DNA of 64,000 nt, from NCBI GenBank assembly GCA_038093975.1, contig JBBPTG010000007.1, positions 1 to 64,000 on the forward strand, read 5' to 3'. This stretch comes from Chalciporus piperatus. Its lineage: Eukaryota > Basidiomycota > Agaricomycetes > Boletales > Boletaceae. Position numbers and translations under genes: made by a program. Positions 14,633 through 55,998 of this stretch are shown here, piece by piece; position 1 is the stretch's first letter, and each line of letters begins with the position of its first letter. Under the pieces are notes generated by a model, which ran no database searches, had not been told where the DNA came from, and saw nothing but the letters and a program-made list of their open reading frames with translations.

Positions 14633-14660
14633 ATGTTCGGAACCAACCTTCAGCTAAGTA

Positions 14661-15075
14661 CTGCTCGCGGGCCAGCGACGACGGCAACGGTCAAGACAAG
14701 ACAATGCAAAGTAGGAGACTTCTCGCAGGTGTGGTGGTGTCCTGGTGGCAGGGAATTGTTGGTGGCTCGCGAACGCACTCCACCAATACTAAGGCTACGA
14801 GTGCGAGACGGCACTGCATGGGGGACTGGCACATTGACGGACGTACAGAGTATCGCTCACTCAAGGGATGGGAGGTGTATTGTCGGGGGACGAACCGATG
14901 GGAAGCTGACGATTTGGGACAGAAAGACTCAAAGAGAAGTCTTTCAAACCGCGGAATTCCACAGCGGAGAGGTCACAGCATTGGATGTCTCACCAGATTC
15001 GACCAAAATTGCGAGTGGATCGGTGGACGGTTCGGTCATGCTGTGGAGTTTCGTCACTGGAAAACGAGGGAACTT
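14661..15075 (+). pseudogene. WD40 fragment, truncated paralog of gene A
   Basis: It encodes two WD40-like blades that closely match gene A: WWCPGGRELLVARE, then GGRTDGKLTIWDRKTQREVF and HSGEVTALDVSPDSTKIASG followed by DGSVMLWS. Similarity ends at about 15060, where gene A continues through more blades. Only a short unrelated tail follows to a stop near 15154. The upstream ATGCAAAGTAGG context resembles the gene A first exon. With no TPR or HET exons it is probably a dead 5' fragment, though it could still make a short protein. Confidence 0.75.
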
Positions 15076-15154
15076 CCGAATGGCCAATCTGGATTTCAGA
15101 CCGATTGGGGCATCTGGCGCATGTATCATTCACGTTTTTAGCGTTTATCCATGA

Positions 15155-16046
15155 GCACAACCTTCTTTTCGTAACTATCACCATGTCACAGAAGCATATC
15201 CTCGAGGAGTCACTGGCCATGACCCGTGTGGTCCGATATCCACGATGGGTTGATCAAAAGGGATCAAACATGCTCATTTGGACATATGGACTACACGTTT
15301 TCCGAGGTGAACGTACAACGGCAAGTCGCATGTTGGTCGCATGCCCCAGGGCCCAGGGTGGTTGCACCAGGTTCAGATGGCAAGCATTCTGGGAGCCGTC
15401 GTATGAAGAAATGGATGACGGGATGGTGCACTGTCAAACCGGAGGGAAGAAGTACGCTCTTGATTACAGCCCGATCAGTGGCACTTACGCGCCGCGGCAG
15501 GCCTTCACTTGCATTTCGAATTGCTCCGGATCTGCCGGCGGGGTCTCGGATGGATTCATCACTGTGCATTCTTGCCAGCGGGGTAGAGGGTTGCCAGTGT
15601 CAGTCATCGGTAAGGACCTTCCTTGGCCCATCAGTCCGAAAATCTGCGCTTCCACAACACACTTCATTACATGCTGGCCATCCTCGCGGTTGATTCAATC
15701 CGCTCCATACCAGGGGACTTTTCTCAACGGCATCTGGCATCATGATCGAGATTGACGAAGAAGTTTCGCCACCCATTAGGCTACTCTGGGAGGGCGCAAG
15801 ATAGCCGATCCACACTGGCACAAGATCCGTTTCAAGTCAAGGTAACGTTTGAAGCCTCGAGGTAAGAAGATGCAAAGTAAGATCGAAAAATTCAGAACGG
15901 GACTTATCAAATTGCCAGACGACAAGGTCGAGAGCTTGCGTGGCCACCCAACATCCAACTCCTTCATCCCCTGTCGCATCTCCAGTGTCTTTTAGCTCTC
16001 CAGGGACGACGGCGACAGTCACGATAGACATCTTAGCTACTGGAAC
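15155..16046. other. spacer between WD40 fragment and gene A
   Basis: No recognisable exon. At 15999-16055 the sequence resembles the region just 5' of the WD40 fragment (about 14668-14715), so the two loci share promoter or 5' sequence from one duplication. Confidence 0.5.
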
Positions 16047-19000
16047 ATGCAAGGTAGGATGCTGCCGCTCAGCACACCCATGGAATTTCATTCATTGATG
16101 TCTACAAAGCCGTTCCAAAACCACTACAAGAGGTCAATATAGATGGTCGGCTAGCTGATGCCTGGTGGTGTCCTGACCGCAGACAAGTGCTGGTAGCTCG
16201 CGAAAACGCTGCAGGAGTAGTTTTGCGAGCGCGAGATGGACATGTATTGGGATCACTGACAGACACGTGGGGTATCATTCCCTCTAGAGACGGAAGGTGG
16301 ATCGTCGGCGGACGGGAGGACGGGAGGCTGACGGTCTGGGATAGAAGAACTCTTGAGGAGGTCGTTCAAACCGCGGAACGCCACAGCGGCAAGGTCGCGG
16401 ACGTGGACATATCACCAGACTCGTCAAAATTTGCGAGCGGCTCAGAAGATGGCTCGATCATGCTGTGGGGTCTCGTTACTGGGAAACAACTTGCGGACCC
16501 TCTGGATATCGGCAGCGGCAAGGCGCTGTCTCTCAAATTCTCCCCCGCTGGTGATCGCCTTGGTGCTTGTCTTTGGGCCGAAGAGGGCGCTGTCTTCATC
16601 TGGGACGTTTCCGGTAATCAGCTCACTCAGCTTCTCAAGATCAACTTTAAGCACCCGCGACGATTTGACTGGTCGGACGATGGAAGACAGGCCCTTGCCG
16701 GATCCAATACTTCGATGGTAGTCATTGATTCCGTGACGTTATCCACAAGCGAGCACCCAACCGGATGTTTGTTCCTTTCACACAGCGGAAAGTTCTTTGT
16801 CGCTTTCACTCCAGGTGTTGGCTCCCGGTTTGCAGATGTGGCGACACATGCCGACCTTAGCCCAACATTTTCTTGTTGGCCACTCGGCCTCTCTGCGGAT
16901 GATACCCTTATGACGGGCTCTCCCATGGGCGGCCTTAGGAACCCACTCTCTATATGGAATGTACAAGATATGCTCCCCAAGTACTACACCCTCGCTGTGA
17001 GTGTTCCATACTCACTTGCCACGCGCCATCGATTAATAGATGATTCTTCTCTATTCTTGCCTTCCCTGGACCAGTCCGTAAGTGGAGTTTAAATGAGCTT
17101 AGAGCGCACAAGTTCTGAACTCGAACTCTTCTTCATTTTTAGCCCGTGAGTCGTCGCTTCGTGTCTCATAGTCTGGGATTGGCACTGACTAGATCGTACA
17201 GCTCATAAATGTCAGCAACGTGGCGCTGGTAGCTTGGTATGAAGGACGGTTACCAGACGCCGAAGCAGCCCTGTCGAGCGAGATTTCCCATCATTCGGAT
17301 AGTAGTCATCATGCGTTCGCTAATCGAGCTCTTGTCCGGGCCCGCTTGGGAGACTGGAATGCATCTCTTGAAGATGCCAGAACGGTAATCTTTCCATCTC
17401 CTCCGTTTGTCCTCTGTTTACTCGAGCACTCTCTAGTCAATTAACATTCAGCCGACCACCACAGGTCGCATCGCAGAGGGAATTGCCTTGAGTGGACAGG
17501 GAAATCACACCGCTGCAATGCTGGCGGTCAATCTTGCCCTTCACAACGATTTTTGGTATGAAAGAGAATTGGTATTGCTCATCAAAGTGAGTCATACATA
17601 TTGCTTAGCACGTTCATTCTCACTGACCTGTTTTGTTGGTCGATTAGGCCATCGTCGTATTCAAGCGCGGACACCATAAAGAGGCTCTCGGACATGTGGC
17701 AGAGATAACACAGATCGCCTTTGATAAGCGGATGCCTAGGTTCATTGAAGTGAGCATTCCTTCCAGCGTCTTTCATCAGACTTGGTTAACATTTTATCTA
17801 GGCTTATATGCATTTACTCCGTGGACAGGGGGCGATGAAGATCAAGAATTACGACGCAGCGATAAAATCGTTCACGACTGCACAAGATCTTGGCCCCTTC
17901 GGCAAGGTACCCAGACTCGACACCATTTTCCTCGTAAGGTCGTGCCTCAACCTCATGTTCGCCCTGATTGACTTGCCGACAGTTGTTTGGATGGGAGTTC
18001 GACTCTTTCTGGTTTACGCTGCACCAACTCAAATGCTCAGCGCTACTCGCCGCAGATCGTACGAAGGATGTAGCTGATTTGCTCAAAGTAATGTCCCTCG
18101 AATTCGGGGACGAGATCATGGCGGAAAAGGAGAAAGCAGCGTGGCTCGCAGGTGAGTATGCTGCGGGGATGTAGTTTCTGCTTGTTCGAATATCAGTTAT
18201 CAGGCAAGAAGGTTCAATGCGTCAAGACGTCGGAGAAACTAGGCGATGCCGCCATGCAATCGAAACAGTTTGATGATGCAACACTGCATTACTCAGCCGC
18301 GTTAGCCAACGATCCCGGGCCACAGAGTGCAGAACGACTCTTTGTTAAGCGCAGCAATGCACATTTGGAGAGGAAGACGTGGGAGAGCGCACTCGAAGAC
18401 GCAGAAGAGGTAGGTCCTCTTCCTCTGAGTACGACATTAGCCACCGTTGACGGTTGTCACAGGCGCTCAAGCTGAATCCGTCATCCGCTGCGGCGCGTGA
18501 GTGCAAGCTTGCAGCACTGCGTGGCCTGGGACGGTATGAGGATGCATTTGATCTCTCGAGGCCGACGGATGCGCAGACCAATCAGTCCCCCGCTATGAAG
18601 CTCCCTCGTGAGCATCTCCGCTACATTATGAGTGGCATGCGCTGACTGTTCGCTACAGAACAGAATGACAAGGTCGACACCGTTTTTGCGGAGACCAAGG
18701 CAGCCATTGATGCGGCTCGCCAAAAGATCCTGAAGAGGTGTCCGCTCGTTGTCATCGACGTCGAAACCGGCCGGCTCTGCGATGGAAGAGAGTGGACGCG
18801 TAAATTCGAGGAGAGTTTGAGTTATAAGGTCCTTGCCACGTCGGGGACGGTACAAGAAGACCTCGTCCGACTTACCGTCGAACAGTTTTTTGCATACGTC
18901 ATGTTCTCCCACAAATGGGACGAGCGGCACCAAGAACCGTCATTCCAGGACCTCTTGGGCAAGTCTGTCTGGGACTTACCGCCATCGCCCACGATCAACA

Positions 19001-20265
19001 AGTTACGCAAATTCTTGGAGCTCGCCAAGAAGGCTGGGTTTAGGTTCGCGTGGTCGGATACGTGTTGTATCAACAAGCTAGACCCGCACGTGTTAGCCGA
19101 GTCGATCACCTCGATGTTCAAGTGGTACGCAGGGGCGGTCCTCACGATAGTCTTCCTCGCGAACGTCCCGTCACCGTCCAGACTAGGTGACCTCAGGACT
19201 AGCGCGTGGATGACGCGGGGCTGGACGCTCCAGGAGCTTCTCGCTCCCAAGGTGATCCGATTCTACGATCGGGACTGGAATCCCTATCTCAACGACCTCT
19301 CCCCTAACCACAAAAACTCACCTGCAATCATGAAAGAGCTGGCTGCGATAATGCACGTAGATCCTGCAACACTCGTCGACTTCCGCCCCCATGCTTTGGG
19401 GGTGCGGGAGAAGCTACGATTAGCTTCGACGCGCGTCACCACCAGGGAGGAAGATATCGCCTACTGCTTGATCGGCATCTTTGCCAGTGACATTCGGCCG
19501 CACTACGGTGAGGGAGCGGATGCGCTCGGGCTGCTCTTGCAGGGGATCGTTGGTCGTTCAGGCGAAGTAGCAGTACTCGCCTGGACGGGAAATCCATCCG
19601 CTTTTCACTCGTGTCTCCCCGGAGAGGTAGCCGTCTACCAGCAGTCCCCATCCATCCCATCCATTCCCGCCGACGAGATCGAAAAGCTCGTCGCGAAGCT
19701 GAAGAACACTACCTCAAAGGAGGTGGCTGCGAGCATCTATGACAAGATCGTCAAACTTGGGCCGCCCCGCTTCATCGACCGCCGTCTCAGCCTCCCTTGT
19801 ATCCAATTTCCCGTAACTGAACTCAGAACCAAGACACTCAGCCTCGCGACCATCTCACGCCAGATGGGTGGCACCGAGAGCGCTTACAGTGCCAAGGTGT
19901 CGGGCATTGGCACTCTGACGATCAAGACGGCAGACGCACTTCCCACCAACGTGAAGGGCCTAAGATTCGTTCTCGTACACCCGTGGATCCGCGATCTCTT
20001 CGATCCAGTGGACGAAGATGATGATTGGAACGATGACCTAGAGCCTGAGGCCGAATTGACCTCTGTACCATCAGCACCGTCGTCCGGTTATGACCGGGCG
20101 TTGAGGTTGATCACTCGTCTCAGACAGCCATTCAGCGCTCTGCTGCTTGTGAAGGTCTCGCACCAGGAGTATCGAAGGGTTGCTGCTGACAAGGAGATCG
20201 TCGTTCAGTTGCCCTTGACTGTGTCGTCGAAGGACATCCGTGTAGGCATGGTGGACATCTTGTGA
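16047..20265 (+). CDS. WD40-TPR-HET protein, gene A
   Basis: Exons: 16047-16053, 16110-16996, 17075-17077, 17143-17145, 17202-17384, 17452-17586, 17648-17749, 17802-17933, 17983-18151, 18204-18409, 18463-18607 and 18659-20265. All phases agree and give about 1,190 residues. WD40 blades fill the first 300 residues (GGREDGRLTVWDRRTLEEVV, DISPDSSKFASGSEDGSIML). TPR-like helices follow (HAFANRALVRARLGDW, then VQCVKTSEKLGDAAMQSKQF). The HET domain lies at the C-terminus after a VIDVETGRLCDG motif: FSHKWDERHQEPSFQDLL, FRFAWSDTCCINK and WMTRGWTLQELLAPKVIRFY. This is the reverse of the HET-NACHT-WD40 order known from HET-E. The expected role is sensing plus incompatibility-type death. The 7-nt first exon is the least certain part. 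Confidence 0.85.
17075..17077 (+). other. 3-nt microexon (Ser codon TCC), gene A
   Basis: TCC sits between AG and GTAAGT. The paralogs have TCA (gene B) and TCT (gene C) at the same place, all Ser, with variation only at the third base. Confidence 0.7.
17143..17145 (+). other. 3-nt microexon (Pro codon CCC), gene A
   Basis: CCC sits between TTTTTAG and GTGAGT. The paralogs have CCA (B) and CCC (C). It is followed by a normal 183-nt exon in all three genes. Confidence 0.7.
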
Positions 20266-22331: not shown

Positions 22332-23653
22332 CTAAGAGATCAAACATCCATCACTATCACGGTTCTGTAGTCCCGCGATCCGGCAATTGGCTGCAGCGAT
22401 TTCCCGCTCCAAATGGAGCTGCCTCTCAAAAGCTTGTTCCCTGAGGTGCGTCTGGTGTTCGTTAATTTTTGCCAACTGAGCCTGCGTCTCACGGCGCTCC
22501 TCAACCAATTGCTCCATCAGTCGCGCGACTATATTTTCTTCGTTGTCTTGCTTCCTTAGATCTTCCCGCTGTTCCTCGAGTGTCCTCTCCAATCTCTCCC
22601 GATCAGCCTCAACAGACGCGATCCTCTCCTCCAGGACTATACGCTCTTTCTCCAACTCCGCTCTCAAAGCACGATCGTTAGCCCTCGCTGCCGCCTCCAT
22701 CTCTTTCCTCAAATCATCCAACTCCTTCTTATGCATCTTCTGCATCTCCCGCATTTGTTCGGTGAGAACCTGACCGGCTGCGGTCTCGGCCAGTTTCTTT
22801 CCCTGACGAAGCTCATCCTGGATCTGCATCGTCACCGGAGGGAGGGGAATGAGCTCCGACATGATTCGTTGCGCAGATTCGAGAGTGTTTGCGTGGCGAC
22901 ACATCTTCGCTCCAGCGTCGATGAGAGTATTGAAGGCTCCGCTCGTTAGATCAGCCTCCCGATGCCCCCCTTCCTGCTCGCTGACCCGATTCCAGTTCGT
23001 GGTGACTATTCGAACGTTACCAAGGTTCTCTTCTCCGCAGAGCGAGCGAAACATTCTCAGGTTTTTTCGCGAAACACCGCCGACCCGGGGATCGGAAATG
23101 CGGTGCATATAGATGACTCCGTTGAGTTTACGCCTCTCTCTGCAATCACCCCAGGTTAGTGATGAAAAGTGAGAAGGTAGGAACCCGACTGAAAGCTTAC
23201 TTACCCCGACTCGGGTTCCAAAAATTGCACTATCTTTTCCAGTATATCTGTATCTGTCATGCCCTCGCGGGAGTCATCGAAACCCGGCGTGTCGATGAGC
23301 ATGACAGTACGACCAGTCGTACGATCGACGTAATAAGCGGTCCGGATGTCGGAAGTTTCGGAATCTTGGTTATGACCGATATGAATGTTGTCATCGTTGG
23401 TGAGAAGTTTGACGAACTGTGAGACAAGCCTAAAGTTCATTACATTGGGGCATACATCTCTGGCACTCACTGTTGACTTCCCTGGGACGCAGAAACGGAG
23501 GGGTGTAATTCACTCTCACAGTCGAGGTGAGGTCAGCACAAACGTACCAGTGCCTGTTGCACCCATGACGCTGTCGGCGTATTAGCTCGTGAGGACAGTG
23601 TACGTTGAGAGGTGTACAGACGCAAACATTACGATGACATTGTCGTTTTCCAT
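22332..23653 (-). CDS. AIG1-like P-loop GTPase with coiled coil and CaaX tail, G1
   Basis: Five exons (23653-23622, 23570-23548, 23481-23471, 23416-23205 and 23139-22332) give 361 residues with matching phase. The P-loop GATGTGKST is split by introns, with the Lys carried on an 11-nt exon. G3 is DTPGFDDS. The usual G4 [TN]KxD is replaced by TTNWN (IVTTNWNRV). From about residue 190 the protein is a long charged coiled coil. It ends CLIS, a CaaX box predicted to be farnesylated, so membrane attachment is likely. AIG1/GIMAP GTPases assemble on membranes and act in immunity in plants and animals; here the role is inferred. Its closest relative is G2. Confidence 0.85.
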
Positions 23654-26248
23654 CGATCTCTGAACTTGCATGGCTATGAACGGCTGAGTAGTTTGGTTAT
23701 ATACAGACTAACAGTAGGGAGAATGATTGGAGATGCAGCGAAGGTAAAAGTTCGCCACACACTTTTATTCCAAGACTTGATATTCATGAACATTCACCGT
23801 GCGACGATCATGGTTCTTCTGACCAAATTCTATCCCGTATCTGGAGTTATTTGGTCGTTGATGCAGATGTGTAGAGTCTTCGAGGAACCGTGAAACCGCA
23901 ACGTTTCGTGGAGCATGCTTGTAGGACATCGTCCCCATCCAGTTCGATATGAAGTGATCTCTTCGGAGTCTTCCATTCTGACCTGGCTTCGAGTCACGGA
24001 ATCAAATTAGAATGGGCTATGGGGAAATGCAGCCAACTTCTACAAGATTGGATCACCACGACGGGAATGAGTCTCCAGAAGTTCCAAACTTAGCTGCACC
24101 GAGCGCTAACCAACCGGTATCTGTCACCTCATGGTCATCAGCCTAGTGAAGGGTGAACGACTGTCTTCATCCGACTCTTGGGTGTGCCTAGGGGAGACTA
24201 GGTCATCAGATATGTCTCTGCAACGTATTCCTGGACCCGAAGGGACCAGGTTTCCAGTTCGTTAATTGTGGCTATACACGGTGTGAAAAAAACCCACAAT
24301 CGTTGTGCGTAAGCGCATCCGTTCAAATCAGGCCGCTCATAATTTTCGACTTTCTTCCAACAAGCTACAGAACAAGATATTTATACGGGGGGACTCCTTG
24401 TACTCGAACCACTACCATGGTCGATTTTTCCCACGCAAAAAGCGGGCAAGGAAACAGCCAATGAAGCTGTAAAGCCCCCAAAAAGAACACTAGAAGACGC
24501 AAGTCGTCTCCTGCGAGTACCCCAAAAGCACAATTCCCCACAGAACTGACTGCTATGGGATATAATAAAGAGTCCAATACGAACCTAACATGACCGAGTT
24601 ACCACACCAAGCCTAAGGCATACAGTGTTGACGAAGCTAAGCTCCTACATGCAAGAATGCCTACGAACTGAAAAACCCCCCAGCCCGACCGGAAAACACC
24701 AAAATAAACCACAGAAACCAATGCCCGACGTCCCAGCCCACACACCCTCTTTTCGCAGACGATAATGAGACCGCACAACGAACACTTACACCACACAGAA
24801 ACGCCCTAGATAACCACCCCCAAAACAGCTAAGCAGGAAATGTAACGAACTCATGTCTATAGATACCCCACGCGGGCCATGCATGTGCCACGATGCACGA
24901 TGATAATTATTCGCCGTAGAACGGTAACCTGAAATAAACATAACCACACCCTAGTTGCATGTCTATTTGGCGCAAACCCCAAATTATAGAGTTCTTGAGG
25001 TTGCACGAATGTGATCCCTCGTGTTCAACTCGAGTCGTCTTCGAGTTTTATGAGCCATTCCTCGACTTGTGCAGACTATTCAATGCAGAAACTGTCATGG
25101 TCAAGTTTCAACTGGTACTGTCACAACGAAGGGCGAAATGCCTGGTCTTGAGGAAGTGTTGAGTTTGGCAGAGATCTTGGAACACACAGCAAGCAAGGTA
25201 CCTGCATTGTTATGACTGCGAACATAATAAAGTATGATGGTATTTGTAGTATATAGAGAGGCTCAGAACTAAACTGTCATTTGACGGATACTCAAGCAGG
25301 CTGCCAGTGGTGCCAGCGATCGGAAACAGCCGTCGGGGACAGGGATGCCCGGAGGGCCTTGTTATGTAGGTCGAGACTCGAGGAATGTCAACACGCTCCA
25401 TTTGGGGTGGCCTCAGGGCTGTAATAGTATTTGTTCGATATGCCAAAAAAATCTTTGGTCACGCGGGCTAATCGCCCACCCGTACATGTTCACTCATCTG
25501 CTCCGCGGGGGTGTACAAACCTGAAAGGACTCGATCGAGAGACCGTGATCAATAGGATTCAACTCTATTCAACTTGAGGAATTCAACTTTCGCACGTCAA
25601 ATCGTTACTAGGAGACCATCAACGAACAACTTGAGCACAAGGGTTCAATACAGAAAGGGTTCCACCGTGACGGAGGTGGGTTCATTTGTTCAACTTGAAG
25701 AAGAAGGAAGAACTTGACACTGACTCACTGCCACTGGGGGGTTGCCAGGACACAACATGCATCCATTCAACTCATTTCCGTAATTGAATATCGTAGATCG
25801 CTCCCCACAGCCCATTCAAATTTGATTCGGGTTCGGAATGGAAGGGGAACAGATCGTTTCATGTCGACGGTCGAGGCAAAACACGATGCACAACTTGAAC
25901 ACATCCCGTGCACATCCATCCTTCTGGCCCCTGCTGGCAGTTGCATATATCCAAATCGGCAACGAAATGGGTCTAGGGCTACGGTTAGCTGTAGGAAATA
26001 GACACCCGTGAGCCCCAAGATTCCAAAAGGAACTTTTGTCTGTGAAATAGAAGTGTGCTCCGACCGGTTTAGCAATCAGGTCAATGCACATCTGGTGTAA
26101 TGTGATCCGTTGCGATCATTGGACGATATATAGCTGCCACTGCTGCCAGGTCATATCTGAACATCGTAGAATGTGGTTTGCGTTGAAATAAAGGTAAGCT
26201 CTGTTCAGTCTTTTTCTTTGTAAAATCGATCTCAGCCCATTAACAGCG
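23654..26248. other. 2.6-kb divergent spacer between G1 and G2
   Basis: No exon could be supported on either strand. It holds a copy of the dispersed GGGAGACTAGGTC repeat (about 24152-24215) and presumably the promoters of both divergently transcribed GTPase genes. Confidence 0.5.
24152..24215 (+). repeat. dispersed repeat copy 2
   Basis: Shares CCTAGTGAAGGGTGA, CCGACTCTT and GGGAGACTAGGTCA with the copy at 52288-52370, in the same order. Confidence 0.5.
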
Positions 26249-27755
26249 ATGGAGGCATCGACCAGGGAAGATATGCCTTCCATAACGTTTGCGTACGTCT
26301 ATCTCCATGTGCGAAGTGATCTCCCAAGCTGACGCAGCTGAAGAGTCATGGGCGCGACTGGCACTGGTACGTTTACCTTGACCGACTGCACGGTTTAATC
26401 TAAGCTCCCCTCGTCCGTTGGCAGGAAAGTCCACGGTGAGCGCCCGAGAGGACTAATCCAATGCGCACGGGTTCTAGTCTCATATATATCGCGCGCAGTT
26501 CATCAATCTTCTCACCAACGACGACGAAATTCATGTCGGCCATAACCAAGACTCCGAAACACTCGATATTCAGATGGCTCGTTATGTTGATAACACGACT
26601 GGTCGTTCCGTCGCGCTTATCGATACGCCAGGGTTCGATGACTCCCGTGAGGGCGTTACTGATACTGAGATCCTGGAGAAGATCGTGCAGTTCTTGGAGC
26701 CCGGACCTGGGCGAGTCACCTCACTTCTTCTTATCACGCTCTACTAACAGCCAGGGAAACTCTCCAGGGAGGGGCGTAAGCTCAATGGGGTCATCTATAT
26801 GCACCGAATTTCGGACCCCCGGGTCGGTGGTGCTTCGCGCAAGAACCTCCGGATGTTTCACTCGCTCTGCGGAGAAGAAAACCTTGTCAACGTTCGTATC
26901 GTCACCACAAACTGGAACCGCGTCAGTGAGCAGGAAGGGGACTATCGAGAAGCTGACTTGAAACGCGGCGCGTTCAAAGCCGTTCTGGAAGCCGGAGCAC
27001 ATATGCGTCGTCATACAAGCACGATCGAATCCGCGCAACAAATCATGTCGGAACTCATTCCCCTCCCCCCAGTGACGATGCAAATCCAGACAGAGCTTCG
27101 TGAGGGAAAGAAGCTGGCGGAGACGTCGGCCGGCATGGTTCTCGCCGCAGAGATGCGGGAAATACAGACGAGACATGAAAAGGACCTGGCCGATCTGAAG
27201 AGAGAGATGGAAGAGGCGGCGAAAGCTAACGATATCGCACTGAGAACCGAGTTGGAGCAAGAGCGTAATGCCCTGGAGGAGAGGATGGAGCGTGCCAACG
27301 CTGATCGGAAGAGACTGGGGACTACGCTCGAGGAGTCACATGCAGGCGTGCCGTCGGCCGAACATGGGATATTCGGCCAGTTGGATGATCGGAGTAAGGA
27401 GGATCGTACGGCTTTAACCACTCTCCAGGTGCAGACGGAACAACTCAAGGCGCACGTGCAAGATGTAGAGGCACGGATCCATGATCTGGAGAAGCAAGAA
27501 CATCGAATGGCGGCGCAGATGTCAGGGGATACCCTGTCGCAGGTGACACCGGACGAAAGGGCTAGATTTGAACGATTGATGGAACGGTTGTCCGGGGAGC
27601 GCAAGCGTGAGGTTCAGCAGGTCGAATGTAACAGGCGTCGGCTGCAGAGACAGGAAGAGGAAATTCATCTGAAACAGCTCGAACTACAGCAGCGACTCGC
27701 TCGGACGGAGGAACTAGAGACGAGGAGGGAACGTCATGGGTGTTTGATCTGTTGA
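26249..27755 (+). CDS. AIG1-like P-loop GTPase with coiled coil and CaaX tail, G2
   Basis: Exons 26249-26292, 26344-26366, 26425-26435 (11 nt), 26499-26714 and 26751-27755. P-loop GATGTGKST, switch/G3 LIDTPGFDDSREG, and a G4 position reading TTNWN as in G1. A long Glu/Arg/Lys-rich coiled coil follows, longer than in G1. The C-terminus is CLIC, a CaaX motif whose three codons TGT TTG ATC are identical to those of G1. The fourth intron as drawn is only 36 bp with donor GTCACC, whereas G1 has a normal GTAAGT donor at this place, so this splice is doubtful and the copy may be impaired. Confidence 0.8.
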
Positions 27756-44300: not shown

Positions 44301-45607
44301 CGGTTCGCGAATGCGTGGTGGGCCGATCCTGGCTGATGTGCAATCTCCTCGGATAAAGTCGCTTCCGCAGGCACCAATCTTCCTTCATACCAGGCAACAA
44401 GTGCCGCGTCGCTGACTTGCAGAAGCTACTCAACCCATGCCCAACAACGAGAGATCATAGTCGATGTCAGGACTGAACTGACAATCGTGGAGAACATGAA
44501 CTTACGGGCTGAAAATGATTTCAAAATGGCCAAAATCAGAACGAGTGCAAAGTGTCTCTGGAAACCACTTACAGACTAAGGACAAGAACCAATTACGGTC
44601 ATGATCCAATCAAGCGCATCAACAAACTCACAGCGATGGTGTAATTTTTCGGAAGGATATCTCGCATACTCCAAACCGAGAGTGGGCCAACGGCCCTGTC
44701 CTCCAGGGGTTCAGTCGCAAAGAGGCAGTCATCTGGCGACAGAGAGAATCCGCTACAGGCAAGGGCTGGGCCAATTTCGCTGTACGTGACAGCGTCCAAA
44801 AATCGAACACCGACATCCCAAGTGAAGGACGCAATAAATTTGCCGTTACTGGCGATATCGCTGAACCCAAAGGGTTGTAGGGTCATCGTACCGGTGGACG
44901 CCTTAATGACTCCCGTTAAAGCTGTGGACCCGGCAATGATTTGCTCCTCATCGTTCAACCACCTCAACTTGTGTACCCACGCGTATGCGACCTTGAAGAG
45001 CAGGGTGAGCTGATTGTGAGAGACATCCCAAACGTAGAGGGCGCCGTCCTCAGCGTAATGACAACCAGCAAGGCGATCTCCAGAAGGAGAGAACTGGAGA
45101 AACCGAACGACACCAGCGCCAAGATGGATAGGTTCTCCGAGCCTCTTTGCCGAGATGCGGCTCCACAAGATAACCGAGCCATCCTCAGCGCCACTTGCAA
45201 CTGTGGACGAGTCAGGTGAGAAGTCGAGTGCCGTGATTTCCTTGCTATGCTGCTCCCCTGTCTGAATGATATCTTTCTGAGTCTTTCTGTCCCAGATAGT
45301 CAGCTTTCCATCGCTGTGTCCTCCGGCAAGCCATCCTCCGTCCCTCGAGGTGACGATGGCAGTCACTGCATCCACTGGTAGTCTCACCCTACGACTGTCC
45401 AGTGCTCGGACGCGCATTGCCACCTTGTTCTCCGAAACCAGCGCCATTTCGTCGCCATCTGGGAAGAATGAGAACTCGGAGATTCGCTCGTCTATCGAGA
45501 TTTCTCGTTGTGGTTTTGGCAACGGTTGGGCTTCAGCTGATACAGTAGTACGTAAGCATTTTGCAATTCAGCTCGTTCAGAGTCTCACCTTGCTCTATCG
45601 GCGACAT
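41382..45607 (-). CDS. WD40-TPR-HET protein, gene C (probable splice-site mutant)
   Basis: Exons resolved: 45607-45589, 45536-44632, 44575-44573, 44508-44506, 44425-44243, 44189-44040, 43988-43887, 43834-43703, further TPR exons to about 43180, and 43015-41382. WD40 blades include DFSPDSSTVASGAEDGSVIL and DGALYVWDVSHNQLTLL. TPR includes HAFANRALVRARLGDW. The HET domain has FSHRWDEEHQEPSFQDL, FRFAWSDTCCINK and WMTRGWTLQELLSPKEIRFY after VLIDVNTGRLCD. The donor after exon 44189-44040 reads GGGAGT where gene A has GTGAGT, and read-through stops at 43989. Unless a rescue splice exists, TPR and HET are lost. One intron has a GC donor (43886), shared with gene B. Confidence 0.82.
44506..44508 (-). 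other. 3-nt microexon (Pro codon CCC), gene C
   Basis: On the minus strand: TTTTCAG-CCC-GTAAGTTC, followed by the 183-nt exon. Confidence 0.7.
44573..44575 (-). other. 3-nt microexon (Ser codon TCT), gene C
   Basis: On the minus strand: TTAG-TCT-GTAAGTGG, positionally equal to those of A and B. Confidence 0.7.
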
Positions 45608-46316
45608 CGTTCATCGCAGCCTAGTAGCACGCACAAGACGAGTACAGTAAAGAGACGCGACAGCAGGAACGTTTGAGCCGGGTAGGAAATGCAGTTCAAC
45701 TGACCCCGTTGTTTTCGAAGATTCCTTACTGACTTGAACACGACCTTCAACCCTTTACCCTACATCTTGATTGTGCCAGATTGACAGGGTGCTGAAAATG
45801 ATCGATGGGAAGTCAGATTTATCCGATCTGAAGCTCTGCTTCCACACGGCGGAAGCAAATTGCACAATGGGCCTCTTCCTCGTCACAGGTCACTTGCCTC
45901 TCGAAGCTTCACCGGATCTTATCATAGACACGTGTCGTCCTAACTTTTCCAGGGTATACAATCCATCAAAGTTACTCTTCCTTGGTCCATTCTTTCCCTA
46001 TCGATGGATTATCCCTCCCGGTAAGTGATTCAATCGGAGCACGATGTGATGCAGCTAGTCCGGAGTTTTACACGGCTCGTATGACCCTCAATTGTTCGGG
46101 TGTGCATGCGCGTGTTGGGTACATGTGGTGCTTCCGTTTATGATTATCGACCCTTTTTCACACCCAGGGAGCTAATCTGTAGGGACCTCTGGCGGATTAG
46201 CTCGACGAGAGGTGAGTTTATTGAATTGCTTGAAGGTATACCGTAGTCTGATGCATCGCTCCACAGAGTAGCATCTGTTTACTCTCCAGAAAACCTTTTG
46301 CACCAACCGATACAAG
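45608..46316. other. divergent promoter region between gene C and G-A
   Basis: No exon seen. It separates a WD40-TPR-HET gene and a GTPase gene transcribed away from each other, so shared regulation is possible. Confidence 0.5.
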
Positions 46317-47532
46317 ATGAGCGACAAACGCTACCCACATTCCGAGGCTGTCTTCGCGTGAGAAGAATTCCACTTACTGACTTTCGCTGGTAACCTACAT
46401 AACTGAGTGACATCACAGTATAATGGGGCCCACCGGAGCGGGGAAGTCTTCGGTGAGCATGTCCGCTGAGCAACGTCCTGCTCAATACTGATTCGATCTT
46501 TCGTGGCGTAGTTTATCAACACAGTAACTGGCTCTGTCCCGGTCGTTCGAATAAGCTCTGGGTTACACAGAATTGAAGTATCACGCTGGGTCACCGCAGA
46601 TGGTCACGTACTCAACATCATCGACACGCCGGGGTTCCATGACGACGTGACGGAAGTCCAAGTCCTTCGAATGATTTCGCACTTCCTAAATAAAGAGCAC
46701 GCACCTTCCCTCCATACTATTCCTTTGCTTGATGTTAATGTCAATCCCAGGTATAGTGGGCCCGAAAAACACTTGACCGGGCTGATATATATTCAGCCAA
46801 TCAACACCGCACTGGTGCCTGGATCACCGAAACAGAACCTGCACGTGTTTCAGGAACTGTGTGGCTCTCAGTCTCTTAAGAACATCGTCATTGCCACGAC
46901 CAAGTGGGATTTGGTCGATCTGATTGTAGGGGCCAAACGAGAACTAGAGTTCAAATCCGAGGAGCCTTTCTTCAAATCTCTCATCGAAGCGGGCGCCGTG
47001 ATGATACGTCATAACGATAATCTCGCCTCTGCTTCGAAGATCATAGCCTACCTTCGTGGCAAGGAAAGTGTGAAAACTGGCATCATCGACGAGCTATTTG
47101 TAAGAAGCTCTGTCACCTACATCCCCATCGCGCGCATGCTAAACAAGGGGCTAGGCGCTGCTTGGAAAAGATGACGGTGACAGGCTTGCTACGGAACAGG
47201 CTGCCATTCAGGCGAACACTGTGGAGTTGGAGCGTGTCCTCGTGGAAGAACGAAGGAAGTCGGAAGCGGAAAGATTGAGGTTCGAAAGACAGAAAAGCAT
47301 CTTGGATGATCAGATTCGGGCATTGTCAAAGAAACGGGAGGAAGACAGGATAGCACAAGAAAAAGCAATGCGAGATGCCATCGAGGCGAAGGACAGAGAG
47401 TTGGCACGTATACTTGACGAACAACGGAGGACGGTGGAAGCAGAGAGAGCCAAGCTGGAATCACAGCGACACTCCTTGAATCGTCAGGTGACAAGGTGCG
47501 CACCCAAGATTTCACTGAGCCTTCTCAATTGA
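46317..47532 (+). CDS. AIG1-like GTPase, truncated in the coiled coil, G-A
   Basis: It starts MSDKRYPHSEAVFA, then P-loop IMGPTGAGKSS, FINTVTGSVPVV, G3 DTPGFHDD and G4 IATTKWDLVD. After DELF a short intron (donor GTAAGA at about 47101, acceptor GGCTAG) joins ALLGKDDGDRLATEQ and a charged coiled coil. The frame ends at SLNRQ plus an unrelated 14-residue tail (VTRCAPKISLSLLN). G3-G5 continue at this point with about 100 more coiled-coil residues and a Trp/Gly module. Sequence is clearly diverged from G3-G5. The next gene G-B begins only 3 bp after this stop. It may be functional as a short form or a decaying copy. Confidence 0.75.
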
Positions 47533-47534
47533 AC

Positions 47535-48585
47535 ATGTTGAATTGCGGCAGTAATAATGCGAGTGGCACTGTTCCTGACTCTGAGCCTATGGTCGTGTAA
47601 GCAGAATGTTACATCCTTTTTTCGGTGGTACTGACAGAATTATGTGGCAGCATCATGGGCCCCGCCGGTGCGGGAAAGTCTTCTGTACGTAGATCCTTTG
47701 TGTTTTATCCTCCTTGGCGCTGATCCTCAGTGTCTTGTTTTTGATTTAGTTCATCAAGTTGATCACCGGGTCTGAGGAAGCTCGAGTCAGAGATAAACTG
47801 GAATCCGAGGCACACGAAGTTCGTGTAATACGTTGGGTTGCGAAAGATGGGAGGGTGCTTCATCTTGCTGACACGCCTGCTTTCAACGACTCGGGCAATG
47901 GCACGACGGGCGCCCAAGCTCTCAGGATCATCGCGAACTTCTTGCTTGACGAGTATGAAACATTCTTCTGTCCTATTTCTTGGTGTTCACGAGTCGATCA
48001 TCCTGCAGGTCCAAACGCGACAACAGACATCTCTCTGGGCTTATCTATGTCCACCCGATCAGCGACGATCGGGTGACCGGGTCAGCGAGACGTACTCTGC
48101 GGATGTTCACGGCGCTCTGCGGCTCTCAAGCCCTACAACATGTCATCATCATCACTTCCAAGTGGGATAAAATTGACCCAGCTGTAGGGGCCAGACGAGA
48201 GAAGGAGCTGATGTCGAAAGAGACCTTATTCAAGCCTTTGATCGACGCACGTGCCATCATGCTACGTCAGGACAATGGCCTGTCGTCTGCCTCAAGAATC
48301 CTCTCCTACCTTTACGGTAGGCAGCCTGTTAAGACGATGGTCGTCGATGAGCTGCTCTCCGGGAAGACCCTGGCAGAGACGTCCGCTGGCCAGGTGCTCA
48401 ATGAGGAGATCCAGTTGCTGTTGAAGAAGAGCCGAGATGACAACGTAATGCTACAAAGAGAAATGCTGAACGCTATCAAGATAAAGGATACGGAGTTGCA
48501 AGGCACCCTCGAGGAGGAACGAAAGGCGAGGGAACAGGAGAGGGCTAGGTTGGAAAACATGCGAGACATCTTGAGGTCCAGATGA
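47535..48585 (+). CDS. AIG1-like GTPase, truncated, with altered G3 motif, G-B
   Basis: It starts MLNCGSNNASGTVPDSEPMV at 47535, then the P-loop IMGPAGAGKSS on the second exon and FIKLITGSEEARV on the third. G3 reads DTPAFNDS in place of DTPGFDDS, losing the invariant switch-II Gly. G4 is ITSKWDKID. The coiled coil follows and stops at MRDILRSR (48585), almost exactly where G-A stops, apparently by a small indel relative to G3-G5 (which read ILNSQITQL). The lost Gly and the truncation suggest a weak or dead GTPase. Confidence 0.75.
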
Positions 48586-48740: not shown

Positions 48741-48771
48741 CTTGTGGCACACTCAAGCTGAAAACCACCTT

Positions 48772-49868: not shown

Positions 49869-52081
49869 ATGCCTTCCGCAAACGCACCGAACCGATCCCA
49901 AACCAAGGATACGACCTCGTAAGTAGATTGACCCTTCTATCGAAGACACATCCTCATTATATTAGCCCCGCGCGTGGCACGCATTCCGACTCGGAGGCCA
50001 TGATTGCGTGAGTAGGGTTCTCACTCATGGAGATTGCATGGTCACAAACAACTCACGACACTCGATAGTATCATGGGTCCCACCGGCGCTGGAAAGTCCT
50101 CGGTAAACGATCTAGTATTGTGAAATATCTAGTTCGATACTGACCTGTGGTTTTCGCGGTCCAGTTTATCAAATTGCTCACCAGGTCCGACGATGTCGTC
50201 ATCGGGGATAACCTGGAGTCCGAGACGAGCGACGTGCAAGTCATACGTTGGGTCACGGATGATGGCGTGGTCAACCTGATTGATACGCCCGGGTTCGATG
50301 ATTCGCGCGATGGCATCACCGATGCCAGTGTTCTTGAGATGATCGCGAAATTCTTGTTGGACGAGTACGGATGTCCATTCTCCTGTTTACCTCACACGCT
50401 GATCGCTCCTCAGGTATCAAGACGACAAGCGACATCTGACTGGATTGATTTACTTCCACTCGATCAGCGATGATCGGGTGACTGGATCAGCGAGACGTAA
50501 TCTCCGCATGTTCCAAGGGCTTTGCGGTTCCCAAGCCCTGAAGAACGTCGTCGTCGCCACGTCCAAGTGGGACAAGGTGACGCCCACCCTGGGTGCTCAA
50601 CGAGAGAAGGAGTTGAAGTCGAAGCCCACGTTGTTCAAGCCCCTGATCGATGCTGGTGCGACGATGCTACCCCACGACAATGGCCTCGTCTCTGCCTTGA
50701 GGATCATGTCCTACATCCGCGAGTTGAACCCTGTTCAAGCCGTCATCGTCGACGAGCTCCTCTCTGGGAAGACTTTGGGCGAAACCTCCGCTGCAGATGC
50801 ACTCACGCAAGAGATTCAGGCTCTATTGCAGAAGAACGAAGAGGATCGACTCACGCTAGAGAGAGAGATGCAAGACGCCATCAAGGCAAAGGACTCAGAG
50901 CTGCAGCGCGTCATCGAGGAGGAACGAAAGGCAAGGGAACAAGATAAGGCGAAGTTGGAGCAGAAGCAAGACACCTTGAATTCTCGGATTACGCAGCTTA
51001 CGCTAGAAAACCAGAGGATGCAAGAGTCTATCAAGGCCAAGGACGAAGAAGCGCAACGCGACCGCCAGAGGACGGAAGCGGAGTTTATCCGTATCCGTGA
51101 CGAAGACCGAAAGGCGAGGGAAGCAGACAAGGCGACTCAGGCGAGACTTTTCGAAGAAAGGGAGAAAGCGCGACGTGAGGAAGATCGTCAGGCGAGGGAA
51201 GCAGAGAAGGCGGCGCAGGAGAAACTCCTCGCTGAAAAGGAGAAAGAATTACAGCGCATCAGTGACAAAGGAAAGGAATTCCGCATCACCTATGTGGAGG
51301 CGCAAACCGAGGCCAAGTTCAAGTTCGCTTTCTTGGGCAGCAAGAGCGAAGGCTATTACGCCAATTGTGGGGGATCCTCTCGATGGTACATCTGGTCTTG
51401 CTAATAGCTGGTCTTTGAGGCTGAGGTTGCCGTTGCTCAGGATTGGATGCCCTAGTGGACTTTCAAAAGTTCTACGTGCGGAGAATGTCGACGACGTGCT
51501 CAAGCTCTTTGCGGGCCCCGATGGCAATTATCTCTTGGAAACTCGCTCCCGGATTTGTGAGTTATATGTTCGCTCAATTGAAAGGAGATGACCTGAGCAA
51601 GAACGCATTGCGCGTCCAGACAGTTGTGGGGTAGCATCGGGAGTTCCCAAAGGCAAAATCGCGCTCTATGCCTTTGGGGAGGGTAACACGTGGTTTGCAC
51701 TCCTAGAAAGCGGTACCTGGATGTCTTCCGGCCTGCCTGCGTCTTTGAAACGAAGGATCGATGACGTAGGCGGATCGAACATCAGGACGCTGTCCTTTGG
51801 CGAGGATGATAGCTGGGCTATGACGTATGGCAACAATAGATGGGCCACGCATGGCGTTCACTCAGACCTAAATGACAAACTGCACTCTTTTGATAGTGTG
51901 AAGGTAAGTTTTGTTGATTTCTACCTGCCCGTGGCCCTTAGGTTACTGACCCCTCCCGAAGAATATTGTTTTGAGTCCGTGGGATTCAAACCACTGGTTC
52001 GTCGAGCATGGGGACGGTTCTTGGAGCCATCGTACACCAAAGTCATGGCATGAGGATCTCCGCAGTATTTTGGATAAGTGA
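49869..52081 (+). CDS. AIG1-like GTPase with coiled coil and Trp/Gly repeat module, G4
   Basis: It starts MPSANAPNRSQTKDTT. P-loop IMGPTGAGKSS lies on its own exon (about 50070-50102). FIKLLTRSDDVV, G3 DTPGFDDSRDG and G4 ATSKWDKV follow. The coiled coil has the DRKAREADK repeats. An intron (GTACAT...CTCAG, ending about 51435) leads to LFAGPDGNYLLETRSR, then another intron, then YAFGEGNTWFALLESGTW, SWAMTYGNNRWATHGVHS and, after a last intron, HWFVEHGDGSWSH, ending at 52081. About 3.9 kb direct duplicate of G5. With the first C-terminal intron retained the protein would stop at YIWSC. Confidence 0.83.
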
Positions 52082-52179: not shown

Positions 52180-52260
52180 GTGTTAACTGCTCATAAGTGA
52201 GCGGAAGCCTGCGTGGGGCTAAGTAAATCAATAGGCAGTATGGTCGACCTCGGTCTCAAC
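52180..52260 (-). repeat. LINE 3'-tail fragment
   Basis: TGTGTTAACTGCTCATAAGT and the following GAGCGGAAGCCTGCGTGGGG match 56387-56450, which is the 3' untranslated part of a LINE remnant. Only this piece is present here. Confidence 0.6.
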
Positions 52261-52287
52261 TTGAAGGCTACGACTAGGAGTGCTATC

Positions 52288-52372
52288 CTAGTGGAGGGTG
52301 ATTTGAACCCGACTCTTCAATGGGTCTGGGAGACTAGGTCACCGTCACTCAGCTCGCTGAAGAGACCTTTCC
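52288..52372 (+). repeat. dispersed repeat copy 4
   Basis: The copy with the longest overlap to both neighbours: its left half matches the 24-kb copy and its right half the 48-kb copy. Possibly a short nonautonomous element. Confidence 0.5.
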
Positions 52373-53492: not shown

Positions 53493-53499
53493 TATAAAA
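53493..53499 (+). promoter_or_regulatory. TATA box of G5
   Basis: TATAAAA in TGTATAAAAGGACGAGAC, 273 bp before the start codon. Confidence 0.6.
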
Positions 53500-53771
53500 G
53501 GACGAGACTTTCCCCCAAAGTGCTCAACCACGACGCTCCGCCAACTCTGATCATCTCTATCAATTCATTCGATCCACAACCTTGTCCAAGTATCCACGAT
53601 CCCTTTTCTCGTTGGCGTGAGGAACTAACAAGAAGATATGCAGACCTATCGCGACAAAGCCTTTCGCGGACGCGCGTGACCTCCAACCCGAAGATATGAC
53701 ACCGTTAGTAGTCTGTCGAGGATACCGTTGTACTCGGAACTAAGTATGAGGTTTTCAGTCCTGCCAAGACA

Positions 53772-55998
53772 ATGCCTTCCGCAAACGCACCGCTCAAGGC
53801 GGACCAATCGCAAACCAACGATACGACCCTGTAAGTAGATTGATCCTTCTATCGAAGACACATTCTCATTATAGTAGCCCCGCGCATGGCACGCACCCCG
53901 ACTCGGAGGCCATGATTGCGTGAGTAGGGTTCCCACTCATGGAGATTGCATGGTCACAAGCAACTCACGACACTCGATAGTATCATGGGTCCTACCGGCG
54001 CTGGAAAGTCCTCGGTAGACGATCTAGTATTGTACATCATCTAGTTACTGACCTATGGTTCTCGCGGTCCAGTTTATCAAATTGCTCACCGGGTCCGATG
54101 ATGTCGTCGTCGGGACAAGCCTGGAGTCCGAGACCAGCGACGTGCGTGTCGTACCTTGGGTCACGGATGATGGCGTGATCAACCTTATCGATACGCCCGG
54201 GTTCGACGATTCGCATGATAACATCACCGATGCAGGCGTTCTTGAGATGGTCGCGAAATTCTTGTTGAAAGAGTACGGATCTCCATTCTCATTTTTACCT
54301 CACACACTGATCGTTCCTCAGGTATCAAGACGACAAGCGACATCTGACTGGATTGATTTACTTCCACCCAATCAGCGATGATAGGGTGACTGGATCAGCG
54401 AGACGTAATCTCCGCATGTTCCAGGGGCTCTGCGGTTCCCAAGCCCTCAAGAACGTCGTCATCGCCACGTCCAAATGGGACAAGGTGACACCCACCCTGG
54501 GTGCTCAACGAGAGAGGGAATTGAAGTCGAAGCCCACGTTGTTCAAGCCTCTGATCGACGCTCATGCGAAGATGATACCCCACGACAATGGCCTCGTCTC
54601 TGCCTTGAGGATTATGTCCTACATCCGCGAGTTGAACCCTGTCCAAGCCGTCATCGTCGACGAGCTCCTCTCTGGAAAGACTTTGGGCGAAACCTCCGCT
54701 GCAGATGCACTCACGCAAGAGATTCAGGCTCTGCTGCAGAAGAACGAAGAGGATCGACTCACGCTGGAGAAAGAGATGCGAGATGCCATCGAGGCAAAGG
54801 ACACAGAGCTGCAGCGCGTCATCGAGGAGGAGCGAAAGGCGAGGGAACAAGATAAGGCGAAGTTGGAGCAGAAGCAAGACATCTTGAATTCTCAGATTAC
54901 GCAGCTTGCCCTCGAAAACCAGAAGATGCAAGAGTCTATCAAGGCCAAGGACGAGGAAGCGCGACGGGAACGCCAGAGGACGGAAGCAGAGTTTACCCGT
55001 ATCCGTGACGAAGACCGGAAGGCGAGGGAGGCAGACAAGACGACTCAGGCGAGACTTTTCGAAGAAAGGGAGAAAGCGCGACGCGAGGAAGACCGGAAGG
55101 CGAGGGAAGCAGAGAAGGCGGCGCAGGAGAAACGTCTCGCTGACAGGGTGAACGAACTACAGCGCATCCGTAACGACGGAAAGAAACACAAGGTGGACTA
55201 CGTCACCGATCTGAAGGAGAAAAGCAACACCAAGTTCAAGTTCGCTTTCGTGGGCACTGAGAGCGAAGGCTATTACGTCCGTCGCGGGCTATCCTCTGGA
55301 TGGTACGTCTGGTCTTGCTCATGGAGCCGGTCTCTGACGCCGAGGTTGCTGTTGGTCAGGGATGGATGCCCTAAGGAACTTTTACATGCTCTAAGGACGG
55401 AGGACGTCGAAGACGTGCGTAGGCTCTTTGCGGGCCCCGATGGCAAATATTTCTTGCGAACTCGCTCCCGAATTTGTAAGTTATATGTTCGCTCAACTCA
55501 AAGGAGATGACCTGAACAAGAACGCCTTGCGTACAGACAGTTATGGGGTGGCATCGGGAGTTCCGCGAGGCGAAATCGCGCTCTATGCATTTGGGGAGGG
55601 TAACACGTGGTTTGCACTCCTAAAAAGCGGTACCTGGATGTCTTCCGGCGTGCCTGTGTCTTTGGAACGAAGGATCAACGAAGTAGACGGATTGAACATC
55701 AAGACGGTATCCTTTGGCCCAGATGATAGCTGGGCTATGACGTATGGCAACAATAGATGGGCCACGCACGGCGTTCACTCAGACCTAAATGACAAACTGC
55801 ACTCTTTTGATAGTGTGAAGGTAAGTTTTGTTGATTTCTACCTGCCCGTGGCCCTTAGGTTACTGACCCCTCCCGAAGAATATTGTTTTGAGTCCGTGGG
55901 ATTCAAACCACTGGTTCGTCGAGCATGGGGACGGTTCTTGGAGCCATCGTACACCAAAGGCATGGCATGAGGATCTCCGCAGTATTTTCGATAAGTGA
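53772..55998 (+). CDS. AIG1-like GTPase with coiled coil and Trp/Gly repeat module, G5
   Basis: It starts MPSANAPLKADQSQTNDTT, identical to G3. P-loop IMGPTGAGKSS, FIKLLTGSDDVVVG, G3 DTPGFDDSHDN, G4 ATSKWDKVT. The coiled coil of about 170 residues ends KHKVDYVTDLKEKSNTKF. C-terminal module: FAFVGTESEGYYVRRG, an intron with donor GTACGT, then RRLFAGPDGKYFLRTRSR, YAFGEGNTWFALLKSGTW, SWAMTYGNNRWATHGVHS and HWFVEHGDGSWSH to the stop at 55998. The C-terminal units each place Trp residues about 10-15 apart, like small beta-propeller blades. The longest and best preserved copy of the family; no stop interrupts even the unspliced first C-terminal intron. Confidence 0.85.

What the first reader, a model, noticed from the sequence alone, without database searches (positions are those of the whole stretch)
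14661..55998. Candidate allorecognition/immune locus: AIG1-like GTPases interleaved with WD40-TPR-HET proteins
Seen: seven GTPase genes with P-loop, DTPGFDD-type G3 and coiled coils, plus three WD40-TPR-HET genes and a WD40 fragment, in about 41 kb. Known: HET domains execute incompatibility death; AIG1/GIMAP GTPases act in immunity and oligomerise on membranes; WD40 and TPR bind ligands. Inference: the GTPases and HET proteins work together, with GTPase assembly signalling through or guarded by the WD40-TPR-HET protein. I know of no described fungal system with this pairing.
Basis: partly seen in the sequence, partly recalled or inferred. Interest (0 to 1): 0.88.

Follow-up and report, generated by a model that had tools for sequence, protein, structure and literature searches.

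The report
Fungal GTPases paired with death-domain proteins
In an unnamed mushroom-forming fungus, GTPases shaped like animal immune GTPases sit beside, and at one other place are fused to, a predicted cell-death protein, which suggests an undescribed type of fungal immune switch, though no experiment has tested it.

Summary
The window has seven GTPase domains in six genes (one gene carries two), three full-length WD40-TPR-HET genes and a WD40 remnant. One of the three HET domains is badly degenerate. The GTPases resemble GIMAP/Toc34 in predicted fold but the member tested misses Pfam's AIG1 cut-off. They fall into two clades. Evidence for a functional link is real but uneven. The same genome holds an in-frame GTPase-TPR-HET fusion gene (by my gene model) and a second head-to-head GTPase/WD40-TPR-HET pair. 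Two other fungi, a basidiomycete and an ascomycete, have GTPase-HET proteins. The three fusions lie in three GTPase clades. Relatives are fused to other fungal NLR parts (PNP_UDP, kinase, ankyrin, NACHT). Against it: outside the window's contig only 2 of 9 loci of this GTPase group lie within 10 kb of a HET gene (p 0.059), the great majority of HET loci have no such neighbour, and the GTPase half of the own-genome fusion shows no purifying selection on its own branch. Best reading: a septin/GIMAP-like GTPase switch working with, sometimes fused to, a HET death effector; a variant of the fungal NLR plan without the STAND ATPase. Allorecognition itself is untested.

The parts
14609..15151 (+). 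WD40 remnant of a WD40-TPR-HET gene
   Evidence: open frame; WD40 match at 14723-15067, 48% to the WD40 part of 41382-45607
15870..20265 (+). WD40-TPR-HET gene 1 (1263 aa, 11 exons in my model)
   Evidence: gene model; WD40, TPR and HET Pfam matches; HET departs at 3 of 68 conserved positions
22332..23793 (-). GTPase gene, clade A, coiled coil, P-loop split by micro-exons
   Evidence: model; tree
26249..27755 (+). GTPase gene, clade A, long coiled coil
   Evidence: model; tree
28996..33356 (+). WD40-TPR-HET gene 2 (1266 aa) with degenerate HET domain
   Evidence: model; HET 20.7 bits, below cut-off 22.5; departs at 19 of 68 conserved positions
37574..39799 (-). GTPase gene, clade B, coiled coil and C-terminal W/G repeat domain
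   Evidence: models (they differ at the 3' end); C-terminal domain matches
41382..45607 (-). WD40-TPR-HET gene 3 (1187 aa, 12 exons in my model)
   Evidence: model; Pfam; HET departs at 3 of 68
45608..46316 (.). divergent intergenic region, 709 bp by my predicted starts, between WD40-TPR-HET gene 3 and a GTPase; contig C271 has the same head-to-head order with 693 bp
46317..48585 (+). one gene with two GTPase-coil modules (46.3-47.5 kb and 47.6-48.6 kb), clade B
   Evidence: overlapping exon models; the ATG at 46317 is my choice; second G3 is DTPAFND
49869..52078 (+). GTPase gene, clade B, with C-terminal repeat domain
   Evidence: models
53772..55998 (+). GTPase gene, clade B, with C-terminal repeat domain (611 aa)
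   Evidence: models; start by match

Best explanation
A tandem-expanded immune-type locus in which a septin/GIMAP-like ('paraseptin') GTPase acts as the nucleotide switch and assembly platform for a HET cell-death effector. SHOWN here: domain anatomy; conserved P-loop and G3 in most GTPases; two GTPase clades beside WD40-TPR-HET genes; fused GTPase-TPR-HET or GTPase-HET genes in three GTPase clades; fast evolution of the GTPases' C-terminal repeat domain against conserved G domain and coil; one degenerate HET copy. INFERRED: the C-terminal repeats of the GTPase and the WD40 propeller of the HET protein are the sensing parts; GTP-driven dimerisation plus coiled coils cluster the GTPase; this clusters TPR-HET proteins, and proximity of TIR-like HET domains triggers cell death. 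The degenerate HET copy may be a regulator or decoy. In fused genes the GTPase stands where the NACHT/NB-ARC domain would stand in an NLR. Whether the trigger is non-self fusion, a virus or a bacterium is unknown.
For: Fusion in the same genome: contig C221; one exon (8827-9346) runs without a stop from the end of the G domain into the first TPR, followed by intact TPR and HET (HET 48.4 bits, TPR_2 40.5 bits); the G domain matches my family profile with 231 bits, and its P-loop exon and GKST micro-exon lie just upstream at 8406 and 8491. Fusions elsewhere: Pisolithus marmoratus P0235 (AIG1 32.4 bits at 25-208, HET 47.6 bits at 633-725) and Lithohypha guttulata P0224 (MMR_HSR1 31.9 bits at 25-83, HET 97.1 bits at 517-676); one is Basidiomycota, the other Ascomycota. 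The three fusions lie in three clades of a 78-domain tree. Head-to-head pair repeated: gene 3/46317 (709 bp) and C271 (693 bp); the two GTPases are sisters (100/99) at 58% identity and the two HET proteins share the closest WD40 parts (63%, against 39-45% for the other five pairs). Partner repertoire: of 57 relatives, 25 carry a non-P-loop Pfam partner and 16 of these carry PNP_UDP, kinase, HET, ankyrin or NACHT-type domains (my count; two of its rows are cut). Sensor-like evolution: dN/dS 0.82-1.18 in the C-terminal domain against 0.34-0.36 (G) and 0.18-0.22 (coil); Fisher p 0.0001-0.001. Fold: the top 25 Foldseek rows for a relative's model are GIMAP1/2/5/7 and Toc33/34.
Confidence: 0.48

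Rival explanations
1. Coincidence in a dynamic compartment: both are large, quickly duplicating families that pile up in the same repeat-rich, fast-evolving regions, and they have no joint function. Fusions arise by chance in such regions.
For: Window begins at a contig end with two retroelement fragments; inverted duplication inside the window; most GTPase-group loci are apart from HET; PF04548 set 1 of 15 near HET; relaxed GTPase half in the C221 fusion.
Against: NACHT (2 of 31, one of them on C271 itself) and P450 (5 of 70) loci in the same genome show less proximity to HET; fusions fall in three GTPase clades and two phyla; head-to-head pair kept while the proteins diverged to about 60% identity.
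Confidence: 0.33
2. The GTPases are a guarded target rather than a switch: they are membrane or organelle GTPases attacked by pathogens, and the WD40-TPR-HET proteins guard them; fusions are integrated decoys.
For: Accelerated non-synonymous change of the GTPase half in the C221 fusion is what an integrated decoy could show; WD40 parts diverge more than HET parts between genes 1 and 3 (41% against 71% identity).
Against: The fast-evolving part of the stand-alone GTPases is their own C-terminal repeat domain, as expected of a sensor; relatives are fused to effector-type enzymes and not to sensors alone.
Confidence: 0.12
3. Septin-like structural or membrane-remodelling GTPases with an ordinary cell role; the HET neighbours are unrelated.
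For: Paraseptin-like predicted fold; coiled coils; a weak Septin Pfam match in one of ten relatives scanned.
Against: Copy number, tandem expansion, two clades at one locus, effector-domain fusions.
Confidence: 0.07

Closest known systems
Fungal NLRs of the HET-NACHT-WD40 (HNWD) type, e.g. Podospora HET-E/D/R
   Same: HET death domain, repeat-type sensor (WD40 or TPR), a nucleotide switch in the same system, clustered and fast evolving.
   Different: No NACHT/NB-ARC seen in these proteins; the nucleotide domain is a septin/GIMAP-like GTPase, usually on a separate gene; HET is on the C-terminal side and not at the N-terminus; WD40 and TPR both present.
AIG1/GIMAP (IAN) immune GTPases and Toc33/34
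   Same: Predicted G-domain fold: top 25 Foldseek rows are GIMAP and Toc33/34; helical extension after the G domain; multi-G-domain members.
   Different: Pfam AIG1 below cut-off in the window member scanned; a near-invariant tryptophan (99% of 175 domains) at the G4 place; C-terminal W/G repeat domain; association with HET.
Bacterial ternary conflict systems with a septin/GIMAP-like GTPase switch (PMC8195603, passages read)
   Same: Idea of a GTPase switch of the septin/GIMAP clade setting the threshold for an effector, in place of a STAND NTPase.
   Different: Bacterial, other effectors; no homology tested here beyond the GTPase class.
Sordariales orthogroup OG0000027, removed from a fungal NLR census (PMC12258605, methods passage read)
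   Different: Excluded there for lacking systematic C-terminal repeats; no HET link reported in the passages read; identity with this family not tested.

Membership tests
AIG1/GIMAP family (PF04548) | Pfam AIG1 match above the curated cut-off | tested here: not met
   37672-39799 protein: 19 bits against 27; the other window members were not scanned with Pfam on their own. A relative, P0235, passes with 32.4.
AIG1/GIMAP family (PF04548) | GIMAP/Toc34-type G-domain fold | tested here: inconclusive
AIG1/GIMAP family (PF04548) | Intact P-loop (G1) and DxxG (G3) | tested here: met
   All 7 window domains have G[PA][TA]G[AT]GKS; G3 is DTPGF[DH]D in 6 and DTPAFND, without the glycine, in one.
HET-domain proteins (PF06985) | HET domain above the curated cut-off | tested here: met
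   Genes 1 and 3: 41.4 and 44.1 bits against 22.5. Gene 2 fails with 20.7.
HET-domain proteins (PF06985) | Expression triggers cell death | not testable with these tools
   No experiment.
Fungal NLR (STAND) proteins | NACHT or NB-ARC domain between effector and repeats | tested here: not met
   Genes 1 and 3 after the WD40 part give only TPR-type and HET families, ANAPC3 included; gene 2 likewise WD40/propeller, TPR and HET only; the GTPase scanned shows no NACHT/NB-ARC.
Allorecognition (het) locus | Allelic polymorphism that controls compatibility | not testable with these tools
   One assembly, no strains.
Two-gene GTPase/HET system | Pairing above chance across genomes | tested here: inconclusive
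   Own genome only: 4 of 11 loci, 2 of 9 without contig C7; three fusions.

The most novel reading that the evidence does not exclude
Fungi own a third class of intracellular immune receptor in which a septin/GIMAP-like GTPase replaces the NACHT or NB-ARC ATPase as the switch. It is modular, being fused or paired with HET, PNP_UDP, kinase, lipoxygenase or ankyrin parts, and has been missed because NLR censuses discard its Pfam signature as false hits.
Probability: 0.33. Interest if true: 0.86.

Novelty: new variant of a known kind. Interest (0 to 1): 0.62.

Why it matters
If true, fungal cell-death immunity would use a GTPase switch of the same clade as animal GIMAPs and bacterial conflict-system GTPases, next to the known STAND ATPases. 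It would give a defined pair of genes, and a natural fusion, with which to test how HET domains are switched on in basidiomycetes. In the ten papers opened here none of the passages that I read reports such a pair, and in three papers on fungal immunity or NLRs the word GTPase does not occur.

Tried and rejected
Rejected: 'seven GTPase genes' (one gene has two modules). Rejected: GTPase neighbours as a general rule for WD40-TPR-HET genes; 26 of the 37 strongest HET matches have a WD40 exon within 6 kb upstream (37 of 83 matches and only the leading WD40 matches were entered), and only those on C7 and C271 lie by this GTPase group. Rejected: general AIG1 (PF04548) pairing with HET (1 of 15 loci). 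Tried: contig lengths and locus tags of hits in other species as a stand-in for gene order; by eye, no contig length was shared between the Pisolithus marmoratus GTPase hits and the listed HET hits of that species; uninformative. Tried: Podospora expression papers that mention MMR_HSR1; there the domain is enriched among DOWN-regulated genes, called ribosome-related in one paper, so no support. Tried: PADLOC with four relatives; weak LeoA/LeoBC matches up to 41.5 bits, and coiled-coil or ankyrin matches, not pursued. The C-terminal repeat domain has no Pfam match and no match among 243 fetched proteins at E 0.01; it was not folded. The model of the Pisolithus fusion P0235 (mean pLDDT 70.9, pTM 0.50) has confident G and HET parts joined by a poorly predicted linker; it says nothing about contact and was not searched. 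No septin row outranked GIMAP/Toc34 in Foldseek; that absence proves nothing. The pair on contig C50 (AIG1-like match crossed by a TAG, HET 2.9 kb away) is weak.
Full report
WHAT IS THERE. The window is the first 64,000 bases of a 425,363-base contig (C7) of a 35.47-Mb, 484-contig genome. Its HET proteins are closest to those of Pisolithus, Gyrodon, Imleria, Boletus and the like (120 rows listed of 629); Pisolithus is in the Boletales and, as I recall, so are the other genera listed. The genome is therefore probably of that order; no near-identical species was hit. A splice-aware predictor that I wrote gives three WD40-TPR-HET genes at 15870-20265(+), 28996-33356(+) and 41382-45607(-). Pfam finds WD40, TPR and HET in each, but the HET domain of gene 2 scores 20.7 bits against a cut-off of 22.5. 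Against 116 relatives (4 of 120 dropped for short matches), gene 2 departs from 19 of 68 near-invariant HET positions, while genes 1 and 3 and the C221 and C271 proteins depart from 3 each; the maximum among the relatives is 8. So gene 2 is full-length but its death domain is probably inactive.

THE GTPASES. Seven G domains lie in six genes: 22332-23793(-), 26249-27755(+), 37574-39799(-), 46317-48585(+, two modules), 49869-52078(+) and 53772-55998(+). All have a P-loop, and six of seven a DTPGF[DH]D G3. Across the G domains of the set, a tryptophan at the G4 place is 99% conserved (175 domains with a residue there). Long charged tails follow; in the model of a relative they are helical. Three genes end in a W/G-rich repeat domain without a Pfam match, found elsewhere in the genome, in one search, only on contigs C145 and C4. 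Among these three near copies dN/dS is 0.34-0.36 in the G domain, 0.18-0.22 in the coil and 0.82-1.18 in the repeat domain; the contrast gives Fisher p of 0.0001 to 0.001 in the three pairs, which are not independent. This is what a sensing surface, or a loosely constrained tail, would show.

FAMILY. The window member scanned reaches MMR_HSR1 (39.6 bits, cut-off 21.9) but not AIG1 (19, cut-off 27). The model of a relative, P0031 (mean pLDDT 84.7), has GIMAP1/2/5/7 and Toc33/34 as its 25 best Foldseek rows. A second aligner cannot separate these from other GTPases: YsxC 17.1, Toc34 17.0, GIMAP2 16.9. I therefore call them septin/GIMAP-like in the wide sense. A paper on septin origins names Toc34 and AIG1/GIMAP as 'paraseptin' GTPases with arginine fingers (PMC11238149, two passages read).

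TWO CLADES, THREE FUSIONS. In a tree of 78 G domains (chosen from 178), the window's GTPases form two separate, supported clades. Clade A (22332, 26249) includes the GTPases of contigs C221 and C350; its sister group holds other mushrooms' members, some fused to lipoxygenase. Clade B (the other five domains) includes the C271 GTPase and is sister to Scleroderma and Pisolithus members. On C221 the G domain runs in frame, within one exon (8827-9346), into the first TPR of a TPR-HET gene; the product has HET 48.4 bits and TPR_2 40.5 bits, but MMR_HSR1 only 18.9, under its cut-off of 21.9. It matches my profile of this GTPase family with 231 bits. The automatic model starts after the P-loop; the P-loop exon and a GKST micro-exon with fitting splice sites lie at 8406 and 8491, as in the 22332 gene. 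Two proteins of other fungi combine GTPase and HET: P0235 of Pisolithus marmoratus (Basidiomycota) and P0224 of Lithohypha guttulata (Ascomycota). The three fusions sit in three clades. The two database cases may be annotation merges; even then the genes would be tandem neighbours. Against the own-genome fusion, changes on its branch are 18 non-synonymous to 6 synonymous, against 4 to 9 on the sister's.

A REPEATED HEAD-TO-HEAD PAIR. Gene 3 (5' end 45607) and the GTPase gene at 46317 are divergent, 709 bases apart by my predicted starts. On C271 a GTPase (5' end 5554) and a WD40-TPR-HET gene (6248) are divergent, 693 bases apart. The two GTPases are sisters (100/99) at 58% identity. Gene 3 and the C271 protein have the closest WD40 parts, 63%, against 39-45% in the other five pairs. 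An old duplication that kept the pair is the simplest reading. The C271 GTPase has a degenerate G3.

STATISTICS IN THIS GENOME. I merged matches within 10 kb into loci and limited the GTPase group, after seeing the hits, at an E-value break. Of 11 loci of the group, 4 lie within 10 kb of one of 75 HET loci; by area 4.5% is expected. P450 gives 5 of 70, NACHT-type NPHP3_N 2 of 31, PF04548 1 of 15. Fisher against P450 0.017, against NACHT 0.032; for all GTPase matches together (5 of 26) 0.093 and 0.145. Without the contig where the finding was made, 2 of 9 (p 0.059), or 3 of 14 with the wider set (p 0.023). HET and GTPase lists are lower bounds because only the best candidates are scored. This alone would not convince; the fusions carry more weight.

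PARTNERS ELSEWHERE. Of the 57 relatives, 25 carry a Pfam domain other than P-loop families by my count of its Pfam column (two rows, P0208 and P0210, are cut): PNP_UDP 9, lipoxygenase 5, protein kinase 3, HET 2, ULD 2, ankyrin without PNP 1, NACHT 1, NAP 1 and PF26082 1. Sixteen of the 25 carry PNP_UDP, kinase, HET, ankyrin or NACHT parts, which appear as parts of fungal NLRs in PMC12258605 and, for PNP_UDP, in PMC9815663 (passages read). I checked seven of these proteins with Pfam and ten further ones of the 57. By the Pfam columns, none of the 86 hits and none of the 120 listed hits combine both domains (two rows are cut).

LITERATURE. Eight searches of the held library. No paper holds 'heterokaryon incompatibility' with 'AIG1' and 'basidiomycet'. 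In PMC10197012, PMC9815663 and PMC12881547 the word GTPase does not occur; one reference title in the first has 'GTP-binding'. PMC12258605 removed an orthogroup with this Pfam signature from its NLR census. PMC8195603 describes bacterial systems with septin/GIMAP-like GTPase switches. PMC8778642 reports AIG1 with Hint in Glomeromycotina. Two Podospora papers list MMR_HSR1 among domains of down-regulated genes; a mushroom infection paper was opened without relevant result. In all of these I saw passages only. Subscription journals are largely not held, so 'undescribed' means not found by these searches.

VERDICT. I put 0.48 on a working GTPase/HET partnership and 0.33 on coincidence in a dynamic region. 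It is a new variant of a known kind (NLR-like, HET-executed death), not a member of the AIG1 family by the Pfam cut-off in the member tested, nor of the STAND NLRs.

Noticed in passing
window 11695-13873 (-): A fourth HET gene of the canonical kind (PF06985 97 bits in the 13043-13873 frame; no Pfam match in the 11695-13065 frame), read in two frames with an intron or frameshift between; not part of the WD40-TPR-HET family.
   Followed up: partly
window 1-5142 (+): Two retroelement fragments side by side: an RVT_2 (copia-type) frame at 1-1878 and an RNase H/integrase (gypsy-type) frame at 2146-5142.
   Followed up: no
window 6637-11479 (+): A Sin3-type co-repressor gene (Sin3_corepress, 129.9 bits in the 8837-10153 frame), a conserved gene beside the dynamic cluster.
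   Followed up: no
window 40200-40685 (-) and 52889-53494 (+): Nearly identical frames upstream of the 39799 and 53772 GTPases in opposite orientation: an inverted segmental duplication that includes the upstream regions.
   Followed up: no
genome contig C26, 21-71 kb (also C78, C251): Several genes with WD40 and TPR matches and the post-HET C-terminal part (query about 300-558) but no match to the HET half: possible effector swaps or losses.
   Followed up: no
proteins P0036, P0214, P0216, P0217, P0234: GTPase of this family fused to lipoxygenase in several mushrooms (P0214 Pfam-checked).
   Followed up: partly
contig C271:13384-18344 (L010:3384-8344): A NACHT-type NLR with WD40 repeats lies about 3 kb from the C271 GTPase/HET pair.
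   Followed up: no
genes 1 and 3 in the window: WD40 parts 41% identical but HET parts 71% identical: sensor divergence or gene conversion of the effector half.
   Followed up: partly
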